Below are positions 15,083 to 41,200 of a stretch of 43,844 bases of DNA, in pieces. Source of the stretch: Crocinitomicaceae bacterium (GTDB lineage Bacteria; Bacteroidota; Bacteroidia; Flavobacteriales_D; Crocinitomicaceae); NCBI GenBank assembly GCA_029247685.1, contig JAQWKT010000017.1:1-43844 (forward strand). The letters run 5' to 3'. A model generated the notes under the pieces. That model did no database searches, was not told the origin of the DNA, and was given only the letters and a program-made list of their open reading frames with translations. The number at the start of each line of letters is the position of its first letter. Within the stretch, counting starts at the first letter, position 1. A program made the translations under genes and the position numbers.

Positions 15083-17689
15083 ATGAAAAGCATTTATACT
15101 ATCTTTTTCTTATTCTTTTTTGTTATTTGCGCAAAATTTAATTCCATAAAATCTCAAGCAAGTATGTTATGTACCTTTGTCAATCTTGATTGCAACAACG
15201 ATGGAATTATTGATTCAATTATAAGTGGTGGGGTTCCTTTAATATTTAGCAATCCAAGTTCTAGCTTTAATTATACTACCACTAATGTTGCATGCGATAC
15301 AAATGCTTTGTCTGGTATAGGCCCAGCAAATTATTCTGTAGCAATTGATTCGAATTGGTTAATGGCAAATGGATATACCGTTAACAATATTACTCCAAAT
15401 GCAATTGCTACCTTTTTACCAACAGCCCATACTATAACTATTCTATTAAATTGTATACAACAACAAAGTAACATGTGCCTTTCTGGACAAGTTTATTGCG
15501 ATACAGATAGTAGCGGATCATTTACTCTAGGAGATACTCCGATAGATTCGGTTCCAATTGTTTTAACTACACCTCAGGGGCAATTTAATGCCTTAACTAC
15601 TTTTTCTGGGAATTACAGTTTCGCTTATTTGGGTATTACCGGTCAAGGATCTTCAGTCTCAATTGACTCTACATGGCTTGCAACAAACTCATTCTCCACA
15701 AATACTAATCCTGTTGGGTTTAACAACGCTGCTTGCCTTTCTATTTCTGGACCCAATATCATTGATTTTCCTATTCTTGGATGCAATCCAATTCAACCTC
15801 CAAGTAACATGTGTTTATCGGGTCAAGTTTATTGCGATATCGATAGTAGTGGAACATTTAATCTAGGCGATATTCCTCTTGATTCTGTACCAGTATTTAT
15901 AACCACACCACAAGGACAAATTACTGCGTATACAAATATGATGGGGAATTATAGTCTAAGTTATTCTGGAACAGCTGGACTTCCAACTGTTGTTATGATT
16001 GACCCTGCATGGCTTACTCAAAATGGAATTACTGGATTTTCTCCTGTAACTATTCAAAATGCTCCATGTGGTCAAGTTGGTGCACTAGCTAATTTCCCAT
16101 TAACTGGATGCAATCCTATTCAACCGCCAAGTAACATGTGTTTATCGGGCCAAGTTTATTGCGATACCGATAGTAGTGGAACGTTTAATCTAGGGGATAT
16201 TCCATTAGATTCCGTTCCAATTTTAATTACGACACCTCAAGGCCAACAAACTGCATATACTAACTTATTAGGTAATTATAATTTTACCTACACTGGGATT
16301 GTTGGAACCCCGACAGTGGTAGTAATTGACCCAGCTTGGCTTGCTCAAAATTTTATTACTGGATTTGCTCCAGTAACTATTCAAAATACAACATGTAGTT
16401 CAGCAGGTAATGGAGCAGTTGCTAACTTCCCATTAACTGGATGCACTATTTCACCTCCACAATTAGACATGTGTGTAACTGGAATTATTTATTGTGATGT
16501 AGATACAAATGGCCAATTTGGTTTTGGAGATATTCCCTTGGATTCTGTTCCTATTACTATCATTACATCCACAGGATCTGTACTGAATATATATACCAAT
16601 TCAAGTGGAATTTATTCATTAACCTATCAAAGTACTGCAGGATTACCAACAATAGTTAGCATTGATCCTGTTTGGTTAATTCAAAATGGTTTTCTTGGAA
16701 ATGGAGTTACAAATGTATTAAACACCCCTTGTATTCTAGGTGGTTCTATTGCCGACTTTCCTTTATCAGGATGTAATCAAAATAACAACACCATGTGTGT
16801 ATCGGGACAAGTTTTTTGTGATGTGGATAGCAATGGAGTATTTAATATAGGAGATACTCCACTTGATTCTGTACCAATTACATTAACCGCCGGATTTGCT
16901 GGTAATTTTAATACCATAACTGATTCTAACGGAATGTATACGATTACTTATCAAGGAGTAGCTCAAAATCCAGCGCTAATAAGTGTAGACAATGCATGGC
17001 TATTAAGTAATGGATACACCACTTTTGGATTTAATCCAACTACTGTTAATAATACCCAATGCAATGCAAGTGGATCCGGAGGAGCAAACGTTAATTTCCC
17101 TATTAATTGTAGTTTCTTTCCTAATCCAAATGACATGTGTATTTCGGGACAAGTTTTTTGTGATGTAGATTCAAATGGGATTTTTTCTCCTTGGGATATT
17201 CCTATTGCACAAGCTCCCATAATTCTTTCACAATCAACTAATCCAGCAATGGTTGTTTACACCGATAATTCTGGTTTTTACAATGCTATTTATCAAGGCA
17301 ACATCCTCTCTGCTGAACTTGATTCAAGTTGGTTAGCAAACAACGCTTACACGACAAATAACAATTCGGTTAATGTAACAAATACTTCTTGTCTCGCTGG
17401 AGGTTTTAATGTGAACTTCCCTCTTTATGGATGCTCCACAACTGAAGTTCTAAATAATTCACCTTTAACTATCCAATTATATCCCAACCCATTTACAGAA
17501 ACACTTCACATTATTTCTAACACATCTATAAAAGGCATACAAATAATTGATTTGAGTGGGAGATTGGTTAAAAATATTGAAAATGATAACGGTTTAAGTA
17601 TTCCGCTAGGAACTTTAGAAAATGGAAATTATCTAATTAAACTAATAAGTAATAAAGGAACTATAATAAAAAAGATTCAGAAAATATAA
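15083..17689 (+). CDS. Secreted tandem SdrD_B-like repeat protein with T9SS sorting domain
   Basis: Signal peptide; six clear repeats starting MC(L/V/I)(S/T)G(Q/I)(V/I)(Y/F)CD plus one degenerate N-terminal copy; C-terminal LYPNPFTETLHI...IIKKIQKI. Confidence 0.93.
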   Translation: MKSIYTIFFLFFFVICAKFNSIKSQASMLCTFVNLDCNNDGIIDSIISGGVPLIFSNPSSSFNYTTTNVACDTNALSGIGPANYSVAIDSNWLMANGYTVNNITPNAIATFLPTAHTITILLNCIQQQSNMCLSGQVYCDTDSSGSFTLGDTPIDSVPIVLTTPQGQFNALTTFSGNYSFAYLGITGQGSSVSIDSTWLATNSFSTNTNPVGFNNAACLSISGPNIIDFPILGCNPIQPPSNMCLSGQVYCDIDSSGTFNLGDIPLDSVPVFITTPQGQITAYTNMMGNYSLSYSGTAGLPTVVMIDPAWLTQNGITGFSPVTIQNAPCGQVGALANFPLTGCNPIQPPSNMCLSGQVYCDTDSSGTFNLGDIPLDSVPILITTPQGQQTAYTNLLGNYNFTYTGIVGTPTVVVIDPAWLAQNFITGFAPVTIQNTTCSSAGNGAVANFPLTGCTISPPQLDMCVTGIIYCDVDTNGQFGFGDIPLDSVPITIITSTGSVLNIYTNSSGIYSLTYQSTAGLPTIVSIDPVWLIQNGFLGNGVTNVLNTPCILGGSIADFPLSGCNQNNNTMCVSGQVFCDVDSNGVFNIGDTPLDSVPITLTAGFAGNFNTITDSNGMYTITYQGVAQNPALISVDNAWLLSNGYTTFGFNPTTVNNTQCNASGSGGANVNFPINCSFFPNPNDMCISGQVFCDVDSNGIFSPWDIPIAQAPIILSQSTNPAMVVYTDNSGFYNAIYQGNILSAELDSSWLANNAYTTNNNSVNVTNTSCLAGGFNVNFPLYGCSTTEVLNNSPLTIQLYPNPFTETLHIISNTSIKGIQIIDLSGRLVKNIENDNGLSIPLGTLENGNYLIKLISNKGTIIKKIQKI
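15473..17445 (+). repeat. In-gene tandem repeat array, six units of about 324-342 bp (starts 15473, 15809, 16136, 16469, 16793, 17135)
   Basis: Direct comparison; units 2 and 3 begin with near-identical DNA (agtaacatgtgtttatcggg[t/c]caagtttattgcgata[t/c]cgatagtagtggaac[a/g]tttaatctagg). Confidence 0.93.
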
Positions 17690-35939: not shown

Positions 35940-38756
35940 ATGCCAAAAGATACTTCTATAAAGTCAGTTTTAATAATCGGTAGTGGACCAATTGTGATTG
36001 GCCAAGCATGCGAATTTGATTACTCTGGATCTCAAGCTTCTAGATCTCTTCGTGAAGAAGGTATCGAAGTGACCCTAATAAATTCAAATCCTGCAACCAT
36101 TATGACCGATAAAGTTGTTGCAGATAATATTTATTTATTGCCATTAGAAGTAAGTAGCATTAAACAAATTTTGGAAAAACATCAAATTGATGCAGTTCTC
36201 CCAACAATGGGTGGTCAAACAGCACTTAACCTATGTATTGAATGTGAAAAAACTGGATTATGGGAAGATTATAACGTAAGAACTGTTGGGGTAAATACAG
36301 ATGCAATTGAAATTACAGAAAACAGGGAGGCATTTAGAGACTTGATGACTGAAATTGGGATTCCAATGGCACCTCAAGAAACTGCTAAATCCTTCTTAGA
36401 AGGAAAAGAAATCGCTCAAAAATTTGGTTTTCCTTTATGCATTAGACCTTCGTATACACTTGGTGGATCGGGTGCATCTATTATTTATGATAAAGCTGAC
36501 TTTGACAACTTGCTTGAAAGAGGATTAAAACTTTCTCCCATTCATGAGGTAATGATAGATAAAGCATTGCTAGGATGGAAAGAATTCGAATTAGAACTAT
36601 TAAGAGATGCAAATGACAATGTGGTTATTATTTGTTCTATTGAAAATTTTGATCCCATGGGAATTCATACTGGAGATTCTATTACTGTTGCTCCTGCTAT
36701 GACTCTATCCGATACAACTTTTCAACGAATGAGAAACATGGCCATTAAAATGATGCGTTCTATTGGAGATTTTGCAGGAGGATGTAACGTTCAATTTGCC
36801 GTTTCTCCAGATGACAACGAAGATATAATTGCTATTGAAATAAATCCAAGAGTATCTAGATCTTCTGCTTTAGCTTCAAAAGCTACAGGATACCCTATTG
36901 CTAAAATAGCTTCTAAACTAGCTATAGGTTACCATTTAGATGAATTAAAAAATCAAATAACAAAAACTACATCTGCTCTTTTTGAACCAACTCTAGACTA
37001 TGTAATCGTTAAGATTCCAAGATGGAACTTTAATAAATTTCATGGAACTAAAAGAGAACTTGGTCTACAAATGAAATCGGTTGGAGAAGTAATGGGAATA
37101 GGCAGGTCTTTTCAAGAAGCACTTCAAAAAGCATGTCAATCTCTTGAAATAAACAGAAATGGTTTAGGTGCTGACGGAAAAGAATTAACCAATCAAAATG
37201 AAATTCTTCACTCTTTATCTAATCCAAGTTGGAATAGATTGTTTCATATCCATGATGCTATAAAGCTTGGAATACCGTTTAAGACCATCATGGAAAAGAC
37301 CAAAATTGACATTTGGTTTTTAAAACAAATTGAAGAGCTAATTAATTTAGAAAAAGAGATTGAACAATATCACATCGGAAACATTCCAAAAGATTTATTC
37401 TTCAATGCCAAACAAAAAGGATATGCAGATAGGCAAATAGCGCACATGTTGAGATGCTTAGAATCCGAAGTGTTTAAGAAAAGAAATGAGTTAAATATCA
37501 AGCGAGTTTATAAATTGGTCGATAGTTGTGCTGCAGAATTTGCTGCAAAGACCCCATATTATTATTCCACATTTGAACTCGAAAATGAAAGCATTGTATC
37601 CGATAGAAAAAAAGTGGTTGTTTTAGGATCAGGCCCTAATCGAATTGGCCAAGGAATTGAATTTGATTACAGCTGTGTTCATGGAGTTTTAGCCGCAAAA
37701 GAATGTGGATACGAAACCATTATGATTAATTGCAATCCAGAAACTGTTTCTACGGATTTTGATACTGCCGATAAACTATATTTTGAACCGGTTTTCTGGG
37801 AACACATTTACGATATAATTCTTCATGAAAAACCAGAAGGAGTTATTGTACAATTAGGAGGACAAACAGCACTTAAACTTGCCGAAAAACTGAATAGATA
37901 TGGCATAAAAGTGCTTGGAACAAGTTTTGATGCTTTAGATTTAGCAGAGGATCGAGGACGATTTTCCCATCTTTTAGAAAAAAACGATATCCCATTTCCA
38001 AAATACGGAGTAGTGGAAAGCGCTGAACAAGCCATTGAGTTGTCTAATGATTTAGGTTTTCCACTTTTGGTGAGGCCCTCTTATGTTCTTGGTGGACAAA
38101 AAATGAAGATTGTTATTAACAAAGAGGAATTAGAACATCATGTCGTAGATATTCTTGCTGAAATGGGAGACAATCAAATTCTGCTAGATCATTTTTTATC
38201 TGGAGCTATTGAAGCAGAAGCAGATGCTATTTGTGATGGAGAAAATGTCTACATTATTGGGATAATGCAACACATTGAACCTGCCGGGATTCATTCTGGG
38301 GATTCATATGCCGTTCTTCCCCCATATAATTTAGGCGATTTTGTAATTCAACAAATTGAAGATATTACCACCAAATTAGCTTTAGAATTAAATACTGTAG
38401 GCCTAATTAATATTCAATTTGCTATAAAAGATGACCAAGTTTATGTTATTGAAGCAAACCCTAGAGCTTCTAGAACAGTTCCATTCATCGCTAAAGCATA
38501 CAATGAGCCTTACGTTAATTATGCGGCAAAAATCATGTTGGGAGAGAAAAAAGTAAGCGACTTTAACTTTACCCCTAAAAAGGAAGGGTATGCAATAAAA
38601 ATACCTGTTTTTTCATACGAAAAATTTCCAGATGTTAAAAAAGAACTTGGACCCGAAATGAAGTCTACTGGAGAAGCTATTCGATTTATTAAAAACTTGA
38701 AAGATCCTTTTTTCAGAAAAATTTATTCTGAAAGAAACATGCATTTATCAAAATAA
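35940..38756 (+). CDS. carB: Carbamoyl-phosphate synthase large subunit
   Basis: VLIIGSGPIVIGQACEFDYSGSQA; two ATP-grasp halves; VLGSGPNRIGQGIEFDYSCVH; EANPRASRTVPF. Confidence 0.98.
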   Translation: MPKDTSIKSVLIIGSGPIVIGQACEFDYSGSQASRSLREEGIEVTLINSNPATIMTDKVVADNIYLLPLEVSSIKQILEKHQIDAVLPTMGGQTALNLCIECEKTGLWEDYNVRTVGVNTDAIEITENREAFRDLMTEIGIPMAPQETAKSFLEGKEIAQKFGFPLCIRPSYTLGGSGASIIYDKADFDNLLERGLKLSPIHEVMIDKALLGWKEFELELLRDANDNVVIICSIENFDPMGIHTGDSITVAPAMTLSDTTFQRMRNMAIKMMRSIGDFAGGCNVQFAVSPDDNEDIIAIEINPRVSRSSALASKATGYPIAKIASKLAIGYHLDELKNQITKTTSALFEPTLDYVIVKIPRWNFNKFHGTKRELGLQMKSVGEVMGIGRSFQEALQKACQSLEINRNGLGADGKELTNQNEILHSLSNPSWNRLFHIHDAIKLGIPFKTIMEKTKIDIWFLKQIEELINLEKEIEQYHIGNIPKDLFFNAKQKGYADRQIAHMLRCLESEVFKKRNELNIKRVYKLVDSCAAEFAAKTPYYYSTFELENESIVSDRKKVVVLGSGPNRIGQGIEFDYSCVHGVLAAKECGYETIMINCNPETVSTDFDTADKLYFEPVFWEHIYDIILHEKPEGVIVQLGGQTALKLAEKLNRYGIKVLGTSFDALDLAEDRGRFSHLLEKNDIPFPKYGVVESAEQAIELSNDLGFPLLVRPSYVLGGQKMKIVINKEELEHHVVDILAEMGDNQILLDHFLSGAIEAEADAICDGENVYIIGIMQHIEPAGIHSGDSYAVLPPYNLGDFVIQQIEDITTKLALELNTVGLINIQFAIKDDQVYVIEANPRASRTVPFIAKAYNEPYVNYAAKIMLGEKKVSDFNFTPKKEGYAIKIPVFSYEKFPDVKKELGPEMKSTGEAIRFIKNLKDPFFRKIYSERNMHLSK

Positions 38757-39007
38757 TGATAGAAGCCAGTTTAGTCGGGGTAATTAAAACAGTTTTAATT
38801 ATTTTAGGTTTTTTTGTTATCCTAAAGTTTGTTGGAAAGATATTAATTCTTAAAAGAAATCTTGCAGAGGAAGAAAGCTTTGTAAAAGAAAAGAAAAACC
38901 AGGAAGCTAAAAAAAAATATATAAATAAAAATTTGGGGAAAACAACTATTTTAAAATCTACAAAAAGTAAGGATGTCCAAGATGTTGAACACGAAGAATT
39001 ATCATAA
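38756..39007 (+). CDS. DUF4834-like small membrane protein
   Basis: 83 aa, one N-terminal TM then a charged tail; start overlaps the carB stop by 1 nt. Confidence 0.75.
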   Translation: MIEASLVGVIKTVLIILGFFVILKFVGKILILKRNLAEEESFVKEKKNQEAKKKYINKNLGKTTILKSTKSKDVQDVEHEELS

Positions 39008-39008
39008 A

Positions 39009-40769
39009 ATGAAAATTTACCATAATCCAAGATGCACAAAAAGTAGAATTGCCTTAAAAGCGATAACAGATAGAGGGCTACAAGTAGAAATTGTAGAATA
39101 TTTGAAAACTCCTATTGCAGAAGAAGAATTAGCAAATATATTGCGCATTTTAAAAGTGGATATTCAAGAAATAATTAGAAAAAACGAAAAAATATTTAAA
39201 GAAAGTTTTAAAGGGAAAACCTTAACTAAAAAAGAATGGATTACCGTTTTATGTGCAAATCCTAAATTAATTCAAAGGCCAATTTTAATATCAGATAATG
39301 TTGCTAGTATTGCAAGAGATGAGCTAGAACTTAATTCCTTTTTAAACAATTTAGAGCACAAACCCTTAATGCAAACAAAATATATTGATCTTATAGAACA
39401 AACATTCGATTTTCCTCAAGACGAATTTAAATTGGTTGATCACTGCCTTAGGTTTCATAAACTTAATTTAATGGAATTAATTAAAAAGCATGGCACACCA
39501 TTAAAATTCAATTATTTACCAAAAATTTCAGAAAATATAAACTCCTGTATACAATGGTTTAATAATTCTATTAAAAAAACAAATTATACAGGAAATTACT
39601 TTTACTCCTATTGTACTAAAAGCAGTCATTTTTCTTTTGTTATCGAGGAGGTTTTAAAAAACCAAGTTCATATTGAAACCTCATCTGCCGTTGACATATC
39701 TATTATTCAACATTTATATAAAGATGGAAAGATAAAAAAAGGAACTTATATTATATGTAATGGCTATAAACCAAAAGATTACATTTCTAAAATAGGCGAA
39801 TTAATTGATCAAACAGACCTTTTTGTTATTTCAGTAATAGATAACACCGAAGAACTTAGCCAGTTACTTCAAACAACGGATAAAAAAATTAACATCGGAA
39901 TTAGAATTGCCTCTGAAGAATCTCCACAATTTACTTTTTATACTTCCAGACTTGGAATTCGATATAAAGACATTATCCCTTTTTTCAAGAAGGAGATTAA
40001 ACCAGATCCGCGAGTTAATTTAACTATGCTTCACTTTTTCATTAATACTGGAATCAATGATAATTCGTATTATTGGAGCGAATTAACTAAATGTCTAGAC
40101 GTCTATTCAGAATTAAAAAAAATAAACCCTGAATTAAAATCACTAAACATTGGCGGAGGTTTTCCTATAAAGAACTCTCTTGGATTTGACTTTGATTATC
40201 AATATATCATTACAGAAATCATTGAAAAAATAAAAAAAACATGTGATAAACATAAAATTAAGGAACCCGATATTTTTACAGAATTTGGCTCATTTACGGT
40301 TGGAGAAAGTGGCGGTGCTATCTTTGAGGTCATTCATCAAAAGCAACAAAATGATCGTGAAAAATGGAACATGATTGATTCATCATTTATGACCAATCTA
40401 CCTGATACGTGGTCAATTAATAAACGATTTATTATGCTTCCCATTAATCGATGGAACAAAGACTACGAACATGTTTTACTAGGAGGACTTACTTGTGACA
40501 GCGATGATTTTTATAATTCGGAGCAACATACTAATTCAATATACCTACCAAAATATGTAAAGGAAGAACCATTATTTATTGGATTTTTTAATACTGGAGC
40601 TTACCAAGAAAGCATTGGAGGGTATGGTGGACTTAAACATTGTCTAATTCCAGAACCAAAACATGTAATTATAAAGAAAGATTCCACAGGAAATATTACC
40701 ACAGAAGTTTTTAATGAAGAACAAAGTCCACAAAATTTTTTATCCATTTTAGGTTATAATAATTCTTAA
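39009..40769 (+). CDS. speA: ArsC/Spx-like thioredoxin-fold domain fused in frame to SpeA-type biosynthetic arginine decarboxylase (586 aa from the ATG at 39009)
   Basis: N-terminal MKIYHNPRCTKSRIALK...RPILISDNVASIARDELELNSFL (ArsC-like), then from Met at 39369 MQTKYIDLIEQTFDFPQDEF...YSYCTKSSHFSFV...LNIGGGFPIKNS...TEFGSFTVGESGG...WNMIDSSFMTNLPDTW...GGLTCDSDD (arginine decarboxylase). No stop between domains. ORF track extends upstream to 38973. Confidence 0.92.
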   Translation: MKIYHNPRCTKSRIALKAITDRGLQVEIVEYLKTPIAEEELANILRILKVDIQEIIRKNEKIFKESFKGKTLTKKEWITVLCANPKLIQRPILISDNVASIARDELELNSFLNNLEHKPLMQTKYIDLIEQTFDFPQDEFKLVDHCLRFHKLNLMELIKKHGTPLKFNYLPKISENINSCIQWFNNSIKKTNYTGNYFYSYCTKSSHFSFVIEEVLKNQVHIETSSAVDISIIQHLYKDGKIKKGTYIICNGYKPKDYISKIGELIDQTDLFVISVIDNTEELSQLLQTTDKKINIGIRIASEESPQFTFYTSRLGIRYKDIIPFFKKEIKPDPRVNLTMLHFFINTGINDNSYYWSELTKCLDVYSELKKINPELKSLNIGGGFPIKNSLGFDFDYQYIITEIIEKIKKTCDKHKIKEPDIFTEFGSFTVGESGGAIFEVIHQKQQNDREKWNMIDSSFMTNLPDTWSINKRFIMLPINRWNKDYEHVLLGGLTCDSDDFYNSEQHTNSIYLPKYVKEEPLFIGFFNTGAYQESIGGYGGLKHCLIPEPKHVIIKKDSTGNITTEVFNEEQSPQNFLSILGYNNS

Positions 40770-40828: not shown

Positions 40829-41200
40829 ATGAAAGTTGACACAATATATTTACGATCGAGCACCATTTTCTCAAAAAAAGTTAGCAAATGGCTAAACAAT
40901 AAAGGAATTGATCCACTTTCTCTTGATGAAGACAAAAGAAATAATGCTATTTCCACTCTTGACGGATTAGTTATTTTCAATGAAAATCAGCACCTTCCTA
41001 AAGATATTGAATATTTAAAAATCCAATTTGATCAAAATCAAAAACCCGTCTACAAGGTTGACATAAATGGCACCCTTCGAGTTGGAGTTTCTAACTTCGC
41101 TCTATGGATTGAACAGAACAAATGCAAAAAAATGATGCTTGCTGGGTCGGATCAATTAGCAGATAACCCAAATTTAGAAAGATACCTTTTAAACATGTAA
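40829..41200 (+). CDS. Hypothetical protein (123 aa)
   Basis: Intact ORF between a candidate promoter and a terminator hairpin; no recognisable family. Confidence 0.75.
   Translation: MKVDTIYLRSSTIFSKKVSKWLNNKGIDPLSLDEDKRNNAISTLDGLVIFNENQHLPKDIEYLKIQFDQNQKPVYKVDINGTLRVGVSNFALWIEQNKCKKMMLAGSDQLADNPNLERYLLNM

What the first reader, a model, noticed from the sequence alone, without database searches (positions are those of the whole stretch)
39009..40769. In-frame fusion of an ArsC/Spx-like thioredoxin-fold domain to SpeA arginine decarboxylase
The ORF runs without a stop from an ArsC-like domain (HNPRCTKSR with the catalytic-type Cys; downstream Arg in RKNE, RPIL and ARDEL) into a full-length arginine decarboxylase of the Bacteroidota type. 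ArsC-like proteins and SpeA are normally separate proteins; I do not know of a described fusion. Inference: the redox domain could sense thiol/disulfide state or modify the PLP enzyme, linking redox stress to agmatine/polyamine synthesis. The Met at 39369 matches the usual SpeA N-terminus, so an internal start could also give a free decarboxylase, making two isoforms.
Basis: partly seen in the sequence, partly recalled or inferred. Interest (0 to 1): 0.75.

Follow-up and report, generated by a model that had tools for sequence, protein, structure and literature searches.

The report
Lone fusion of two neighbouring genes
In one uncultured Crocinitomicaceae-type bacterium, two genes that its relatives keep side by side but separate (an arsenate-reductase-like protein and an arginine-decarboxylase-like enzyme) read as one continuous protein; no other genome checked shows this, so it is either a one-off fusion or a one-base sequencing error, not a new regulatory system.

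Summary
The ORF is real as assembled: 39009-40769 (+), 586 aa, no stop, ArsC domain (residues 4-108) followed by a Bacteroidota-type arginine/ornithine-family decarboxylase (from Met121, coordinate 39369). The fusion is unique in everything searched. In the genus (86 genomes), family (240), a draw from the order (399) and a draw from the class (395), no second stop-free fusion was found. arsC and the decarboxylase gene (adc) are usually direct neighbours in this genus: about 38 of 60 genomes with a full-length adc hit. Thirty pairs are already in the same frame, five of them with one stop between. The nearest relative (EAC53; ArsC 57%, decarboxylase 74%) has the same gene order, with a TAG stop and an 11-nt spacer. 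The fusion is best explained as a lineage-specific stop loss or 1-nt frameshift in a conserved gene pair. Almost any single-base deletion near the junction would separate the genes, so a 1-nt error cannot be excluded without reads. Both domains keep their catalytic residues and the decarboxylase start Met is invariant, so a free decarboxylase may still be made. Nothing supports redox sensing: the ArsC motif is CTKS, not the CxxC of Spx.

The parts
39009..40769 (+). fused ORF, ArsC-like domain + short Bacteroidota-type arginine/ornithine-family decarboxylase, 586 aa
   Evidence: open frame without stop, Pfam ArsC and Orn_Arg_deC_N, single copy in its genome
39009..39353 (+). ArsC-like domain (C9, R58, R91, R104 kept; CTKS motif), homologous to the separate arsC of relatives through ...FLNNL
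   Evidence: predicted well folded, block mean pLDDT 82-89 for residues 1-110
39354..39368 (+). fusion junction (EHKPL), former stop and intergenic spacer; relatives have a stop here; TAATG lies in the +1 frame at 39367-39371
   Evidence: low-confidence segment, residues 118-137
39369..40769 (+). decarboxylase, 466 aa, starting at the conserved Met; PLP Lys204, GGG382-384, C496/D497 all present
   Evidence: best fold and sequence matches are SpeA structures 3n2o, 3nzp, 3nzq
40829..41200 (+). orf123, conserved small protein directly downstream of adc in the family
   Evidence: found beside adc in about 75 distinct loci; no family above cut-off
38756..39007 (+). 83-aa small protein just upstream of arsC (43% identical counterpart in EAC53)

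Best explanation
It is a lineage-specific fusion of two neighbouring genes. The ancestral family module was arsC, then adc, then orf123, with arsC ending a few bases before, or overlapping, the adc start codon (shown by relatives). In this genome the stop of arsC is gone, by stop loss or a small indel at its last codons, and the frame matches adc (shown as assembled). Ribosomes that start at 39009 should make a 586-aa protein whose two domains each fold and work as their separate counterparts do, joined by a short flexible linker (inferred). The old adc start at 39369 is intact, so some free decarboxylase is probably also made (inferred). Each activity, ArsC-type thiol chemistry and arginine decarboxylation, is inferred from homology and retained residues, not shown.
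For: No stop in 586 codons. Adjacent separate arsC and adc in about 50 distinct loci, gaps -11 to +63 nt, thirty in the same frame and five with one stop between. Nearest relative EAC53 has the same order (carB, small ORF, arsC, adc, orf123, hutH), ArsC 57%, decarboxylase 74%, ending FLNQLI-stop where this one reads FLNNLEHKPL. Catalytic residues of both domains kept. Both regions look constrained against EAC53: dN/dS about 0.2 for ArsC and 0.1 for the decarboxylase, dS near saturation. No broken conserved gene noticed elsewhere in the window, so indel errors are not common here. ArsC domain and much of the barrel predicted folded, junction of low confidence.
Against: Only one genome has it. 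The +1 frame holds stops just before the start codon, including TAATG as in some relatives, so a 1-nt error would produce this picture. The ArsC region scores slightly under the arsC equivalog cut-off (100.5 of 106.05 bits) while the two relatives tested pass (118 and 128.3 bits), which could mean weaker constraint.
Confidence: 0.65

Rival explanations
1. Artefact: a 1-nt assembly or sequencing error near the junction hides a normal arsC stop, and the two genes are separate as in every relative.
For: Unique among all genomes searched. Deleting almost any single base (50 of 51) between 39318 and 39368 separates the genes; deletions at 39353-39367 give TAATG at the adc start, as in L007, L023 and L046, and an ArsC of a length seen in relatives.
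Against: The other conserved genes of the 43.8 kb window look unbroken, and flanking gene order matches EAC53, so neither frequent indels nor a false join is indicated. The junction holds only short homopolymers (TTTTT, AAA, CCC).
Confidence: 0.25
2. Functional redox- or arsenate-sensing fusion: the ArsC domain regulates the decarboxylase and links thiol stress to agmatine synthesis.
For: ArsC catalytic residues kept. The arsC-adc neighbourhood is conserved in the family, which suggests some functional link.
Against: CTKS instead of the CxxC of Spx. Fusion not conserved in any relative. Junction predicted with low confidence and no sign of a defined interface. No measurement exists.
Confidence: 0.05
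3. The fusion fixes an existing complex: ArsC and the decarboxylase already interact as separate proteins in the family, and fusion merely joins them.
For: Tight, often overlapping arsC-adc arrangement in about 38 of 60 genomes of the genus with a full-length adc hit (hand count) and in further genera.
Against: Many family members have adc and orf123 without a neighbouring arsC, so arsC is dispensable for the decarboxylase. No co-evolution or interface evidence.
Confidence: 0.05

Closest known systems
Separate arsC-adc neighbour pair of Crocinitomicaceae-type genomes (nearest: EAC53, NZQU01000092.1)
   Same: Same two genes, order, flanking genes and catalytic residues.
   Different: There the arsC stop and a short spacer separate the genes; here the frame is continuous.
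SpeA biosynthetic arginine decarboxylase (3n2o, 3nzp, 3nzq)
   Same: Best matches by sequence and by fold; PLP Lys, GGG loop and TCDSD motif present.
   Different: About 466 aa, far below SpeA equivalog cut-offs, plus the N-terminal ArsC domain here.
Glutaredoxin-dependent arsenate reductase ArsC (1i9d, 3rdw)
   Same: Single catalytic Cys and three Arg in place, same fold; 3rdw TM-score 0.86 by target length.
   Different: Fused to a decarboxylase; 100.5 bits against the 106.05 cut-off.
Published fusions of polyamine-pathway decarboxylases: F. nucleatum ornithine decarboxylase-arginase homologue, and decarboxylases with an N-terminal REC domain (PMC8503589)
   Same: A decarboxylase of amine synthesis joined to another domain; in F. 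nucleatum the decarboxylase domain alone is similarly active to the fusion.
   Different: Those are aspartate-aminotransferase-fold enzymes with other partners, and the fusions recur across their clades; this one is of the alanine-racemase-type fold, with ArsC, and is a singleton.

Membership tests
ArsC arsenate reductase | Pfam ArsC PF03960 above its cut-off | tested here: met
   43.4 bits against 24
ArsC arsenate reductase | NCBIfam arsC equivalog TIGR00014 above its cut-off | tested here: not met
   100.5 bits against 106.05; two relatives pass with 118 and 128.3
ArsC arsenate reductase | catalytic Cys and the three Arg (C12, R60, R94, R107 in E. coli plasmid ArsC numbering, from general knowledge) | tested here: met
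   C9, R58, R91, R104 aligned with relatives and with 3rdw; the last Arg lies outside some of the other PDB alignments
ArsC arsenate reductase | arsenate reductase activity | not testable with these tools
   needs an enzyme assay
Spx/MgsR regulators | TIGR01617 above its cut-off | tested here: not met
   47 bits against 75.05
Spx/MgsR regulators | N-terminal CxxC redox switch | tested here: not met
   motif is CTKS
SpeA arginine decarboxylase | TIGR01273 or NF003763 above cut-off | tested here: not met
   161.9 of 624.1 and 167.6 of 369 bits
SpeA arginine decarboxylase | PLP-binding Lys and active-site motifs of alanine-racemase-fold decarboxylases | tested here: met
   K204, GGG382-384, C496/D497, GAYQE invariant in 40 rows; SpeA structures are best matches
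SpeA arginine decarboxylase | arginine as substrate | not testable with these tools
   needs an enzyme assay
Conserved fused architecture | same fusion in more than one species | tested here: not met
   no second stop-free hit in genus, family, order draw or class draw

The most novel reading that the evidence does not exclude
A true bifunctional ArsC-arginine decarboxylase in which the thiol domain modulates agmatine synthesis, or an existing ArsC-decarboxylase partnership of this family made permanent by fusion.
Probability: 0.07. Interest if true: 0.55.

Novelty: new variant of a known kind. Interest (0 to 1): 0.22.

Why it matters
If real, it shows how a tightly packed gene pair becomes a two-domain enzyme by one small mutation, with the intermediate states (same frame, one stop) still visible in relatives. 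It also points to the unexplained family-wide neighbourhood of arsC, a polyamine-type decarboxylase and a small unknown protein, which is the more general question. As a redox sensor it is not supported.

Tried and rejected
Second fusions: candidates with long open frames or extended matches (G123, G222, G367, G259, G301, G058) were fetched and read; none is a fusion. Spx-type regulator: rejected on motif and score. Start-context scoring for the internal start: not informative, real starts scatter as widely. A first mixed alignment (A1) put ArsC rows on the decarboxylase and was dropped; an alignment of read-through frames (A3) was used instead. Literature searches for an ArsC-arginine decarboxylase fusion or link gave only whole-genome or regulon papers that mention both.

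Full report
The frame from 39009 to 40769 has no stop and gives 586 aa. Pfam places an ArsC domain at residues 4-108 and the PLP domain of an ornithine/arginine-type decarboxylase at 196-431. The genome has one copy.

The second domain is the short decarboxylase common in this class. SpeA structures are its best matches by sequence and by fold, but it is far below the SpeA equivalog cut-offs, so arginine as substrate is an inference. The first domain is ArsC-like: Cys9 and Arg58, Arg91 and Arg104 are in place. It carries CTKS and not the CxxC of Spx, and scores 47 of 75 bits for Spx/MgsR.

The fusion is unique in what was searched. The genus (86 genomes), the family (240), a draw of 399 from the order and one of 395 from the class contain no other stop-free hit covering both domains. 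Instead the two genes are neighbours. In the genus, a hand count gives 38 of 60 genomes with a full-length decarboxylase hit in which arsC lies directly upstream (the window's genome included). In about 50 distinct loci, drawn from several genera, the end of the arsC stop lies from 11 nt inside to 63 nt before the decarboxylase start. Thirty of these pairs share the reading frame, and L042, L125, L129, L114 and L115 have one stop between them.

The nearest relative, EAC53 (L043, L142; 57% in ArsC and 74% in the decarboxylase), has the same neighbours on both sides: carB, a small ORF, arsC, adc, orf123, hutH. Its ArsC ends FLNQLI-TAG, 11 nt before ATG. The window reads FLNNLEHKPL and then the same Met. 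The homology in frame through FLNNL suggests that the change lies in the last few codons or the spacer.

Real or error? Nearly every single-base deletion between 39318 and 39368 would end ArsC before or at the decarboxylase start, and ten single substitutions would too. The +1 frame carries TAATG at the start codon, as in some relatives. This fits a recent 1-nt insertion, in the organism or in the assembly. The other conserved genes of the window look intact and the gene order is that of EAC53, so I put a real fusion at about three in four.

How it would work. AlphaFold2 on an alignment of read-through frames gives a confident ArsC domain, a partly confident barrel, a poor C-terminal domain and a low-confidence junction at residues 118-137 (mean pLDDT 68.6, pTM 0.52). 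Two domains on a flexible linker, each acting as its separate counterpart, is the simplest reading. Met121 is invariant across the aligned relatives, so internal starts may still give free decarboxylase. Start-context scoring could not decide this. Against EAC53 both parts look constrained, dN/dS about 0.2 and 0.1 with dS near saturation.

Downstream pathway. The genome has an arginase-like protein (206.7 of 227.6 bits for arginase) but no agmatinase over its cut-off, no deoxyhypusine-synthase-type protein and no PAD_porph protein. At 94% completeness this does not prove absence. EAC53 does have an agmatinase.

Compared with what is known: published fusions of polyamine-pathway decarboxylases exist, such as the ornithine decarboxylase-arginase homologue of Fusobacteriaceae, whose decarboxylase domain alone is similarly active to the fusion (PMC8503589). 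I found no paper on an ArsC fusion of this kind. The finding is therefore a singleton variant of a known kind of event, the fusion of a gene pair, with modest interest.

Noticed in passing
window 40829-41200 (+): orf123, a 123-aa protein with no family above cut-off (only a weak hint to the circularly permuted YpsA SLOG family, E = 0.041), sits directly downstream of adc in about 75 distinct loci, also where arsC is absent.
   Followed up: partly
G000 genome, L147: Decarboxylase present but no agmatinase, deoxyhypusine-synthase-type or agmatine-deiminase-type (PAD_porph) protein found; the only PF00491 protein is arginase-like. The fate of agmatine is unclear, or genes lie in the missing 6%.
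   Followed up: partly
L042, L125, L129, L114, L115: Relatives in which arsC and adc are in the same frame with one stop codon between them, one substitution away from the fused state.
   Followed up: yes
ArsC of many relatives, e.g. L111, L031, L025: Their motif reads CSKSRC, a second Cys five residues after the catalytic one; the window protein has CTKSRI. A possible disulfide pair in relatives, not tested.
   Followed up: no
L069, L037, L047, L055, L040: Public records titled Glaciecola, Kuenenia, Chryseobacterium, Planktophila or Chitinophaga carry this Crocinitomicaceae-type decarboxylase (all but L055 also an arsC upstream); the titles look misassigned.
   Followed up: no
window 15083-17689 (+): 868-aa secreted protein with repeated SdrD_B-like domains and a Por secretion tail.
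   Followed up: no
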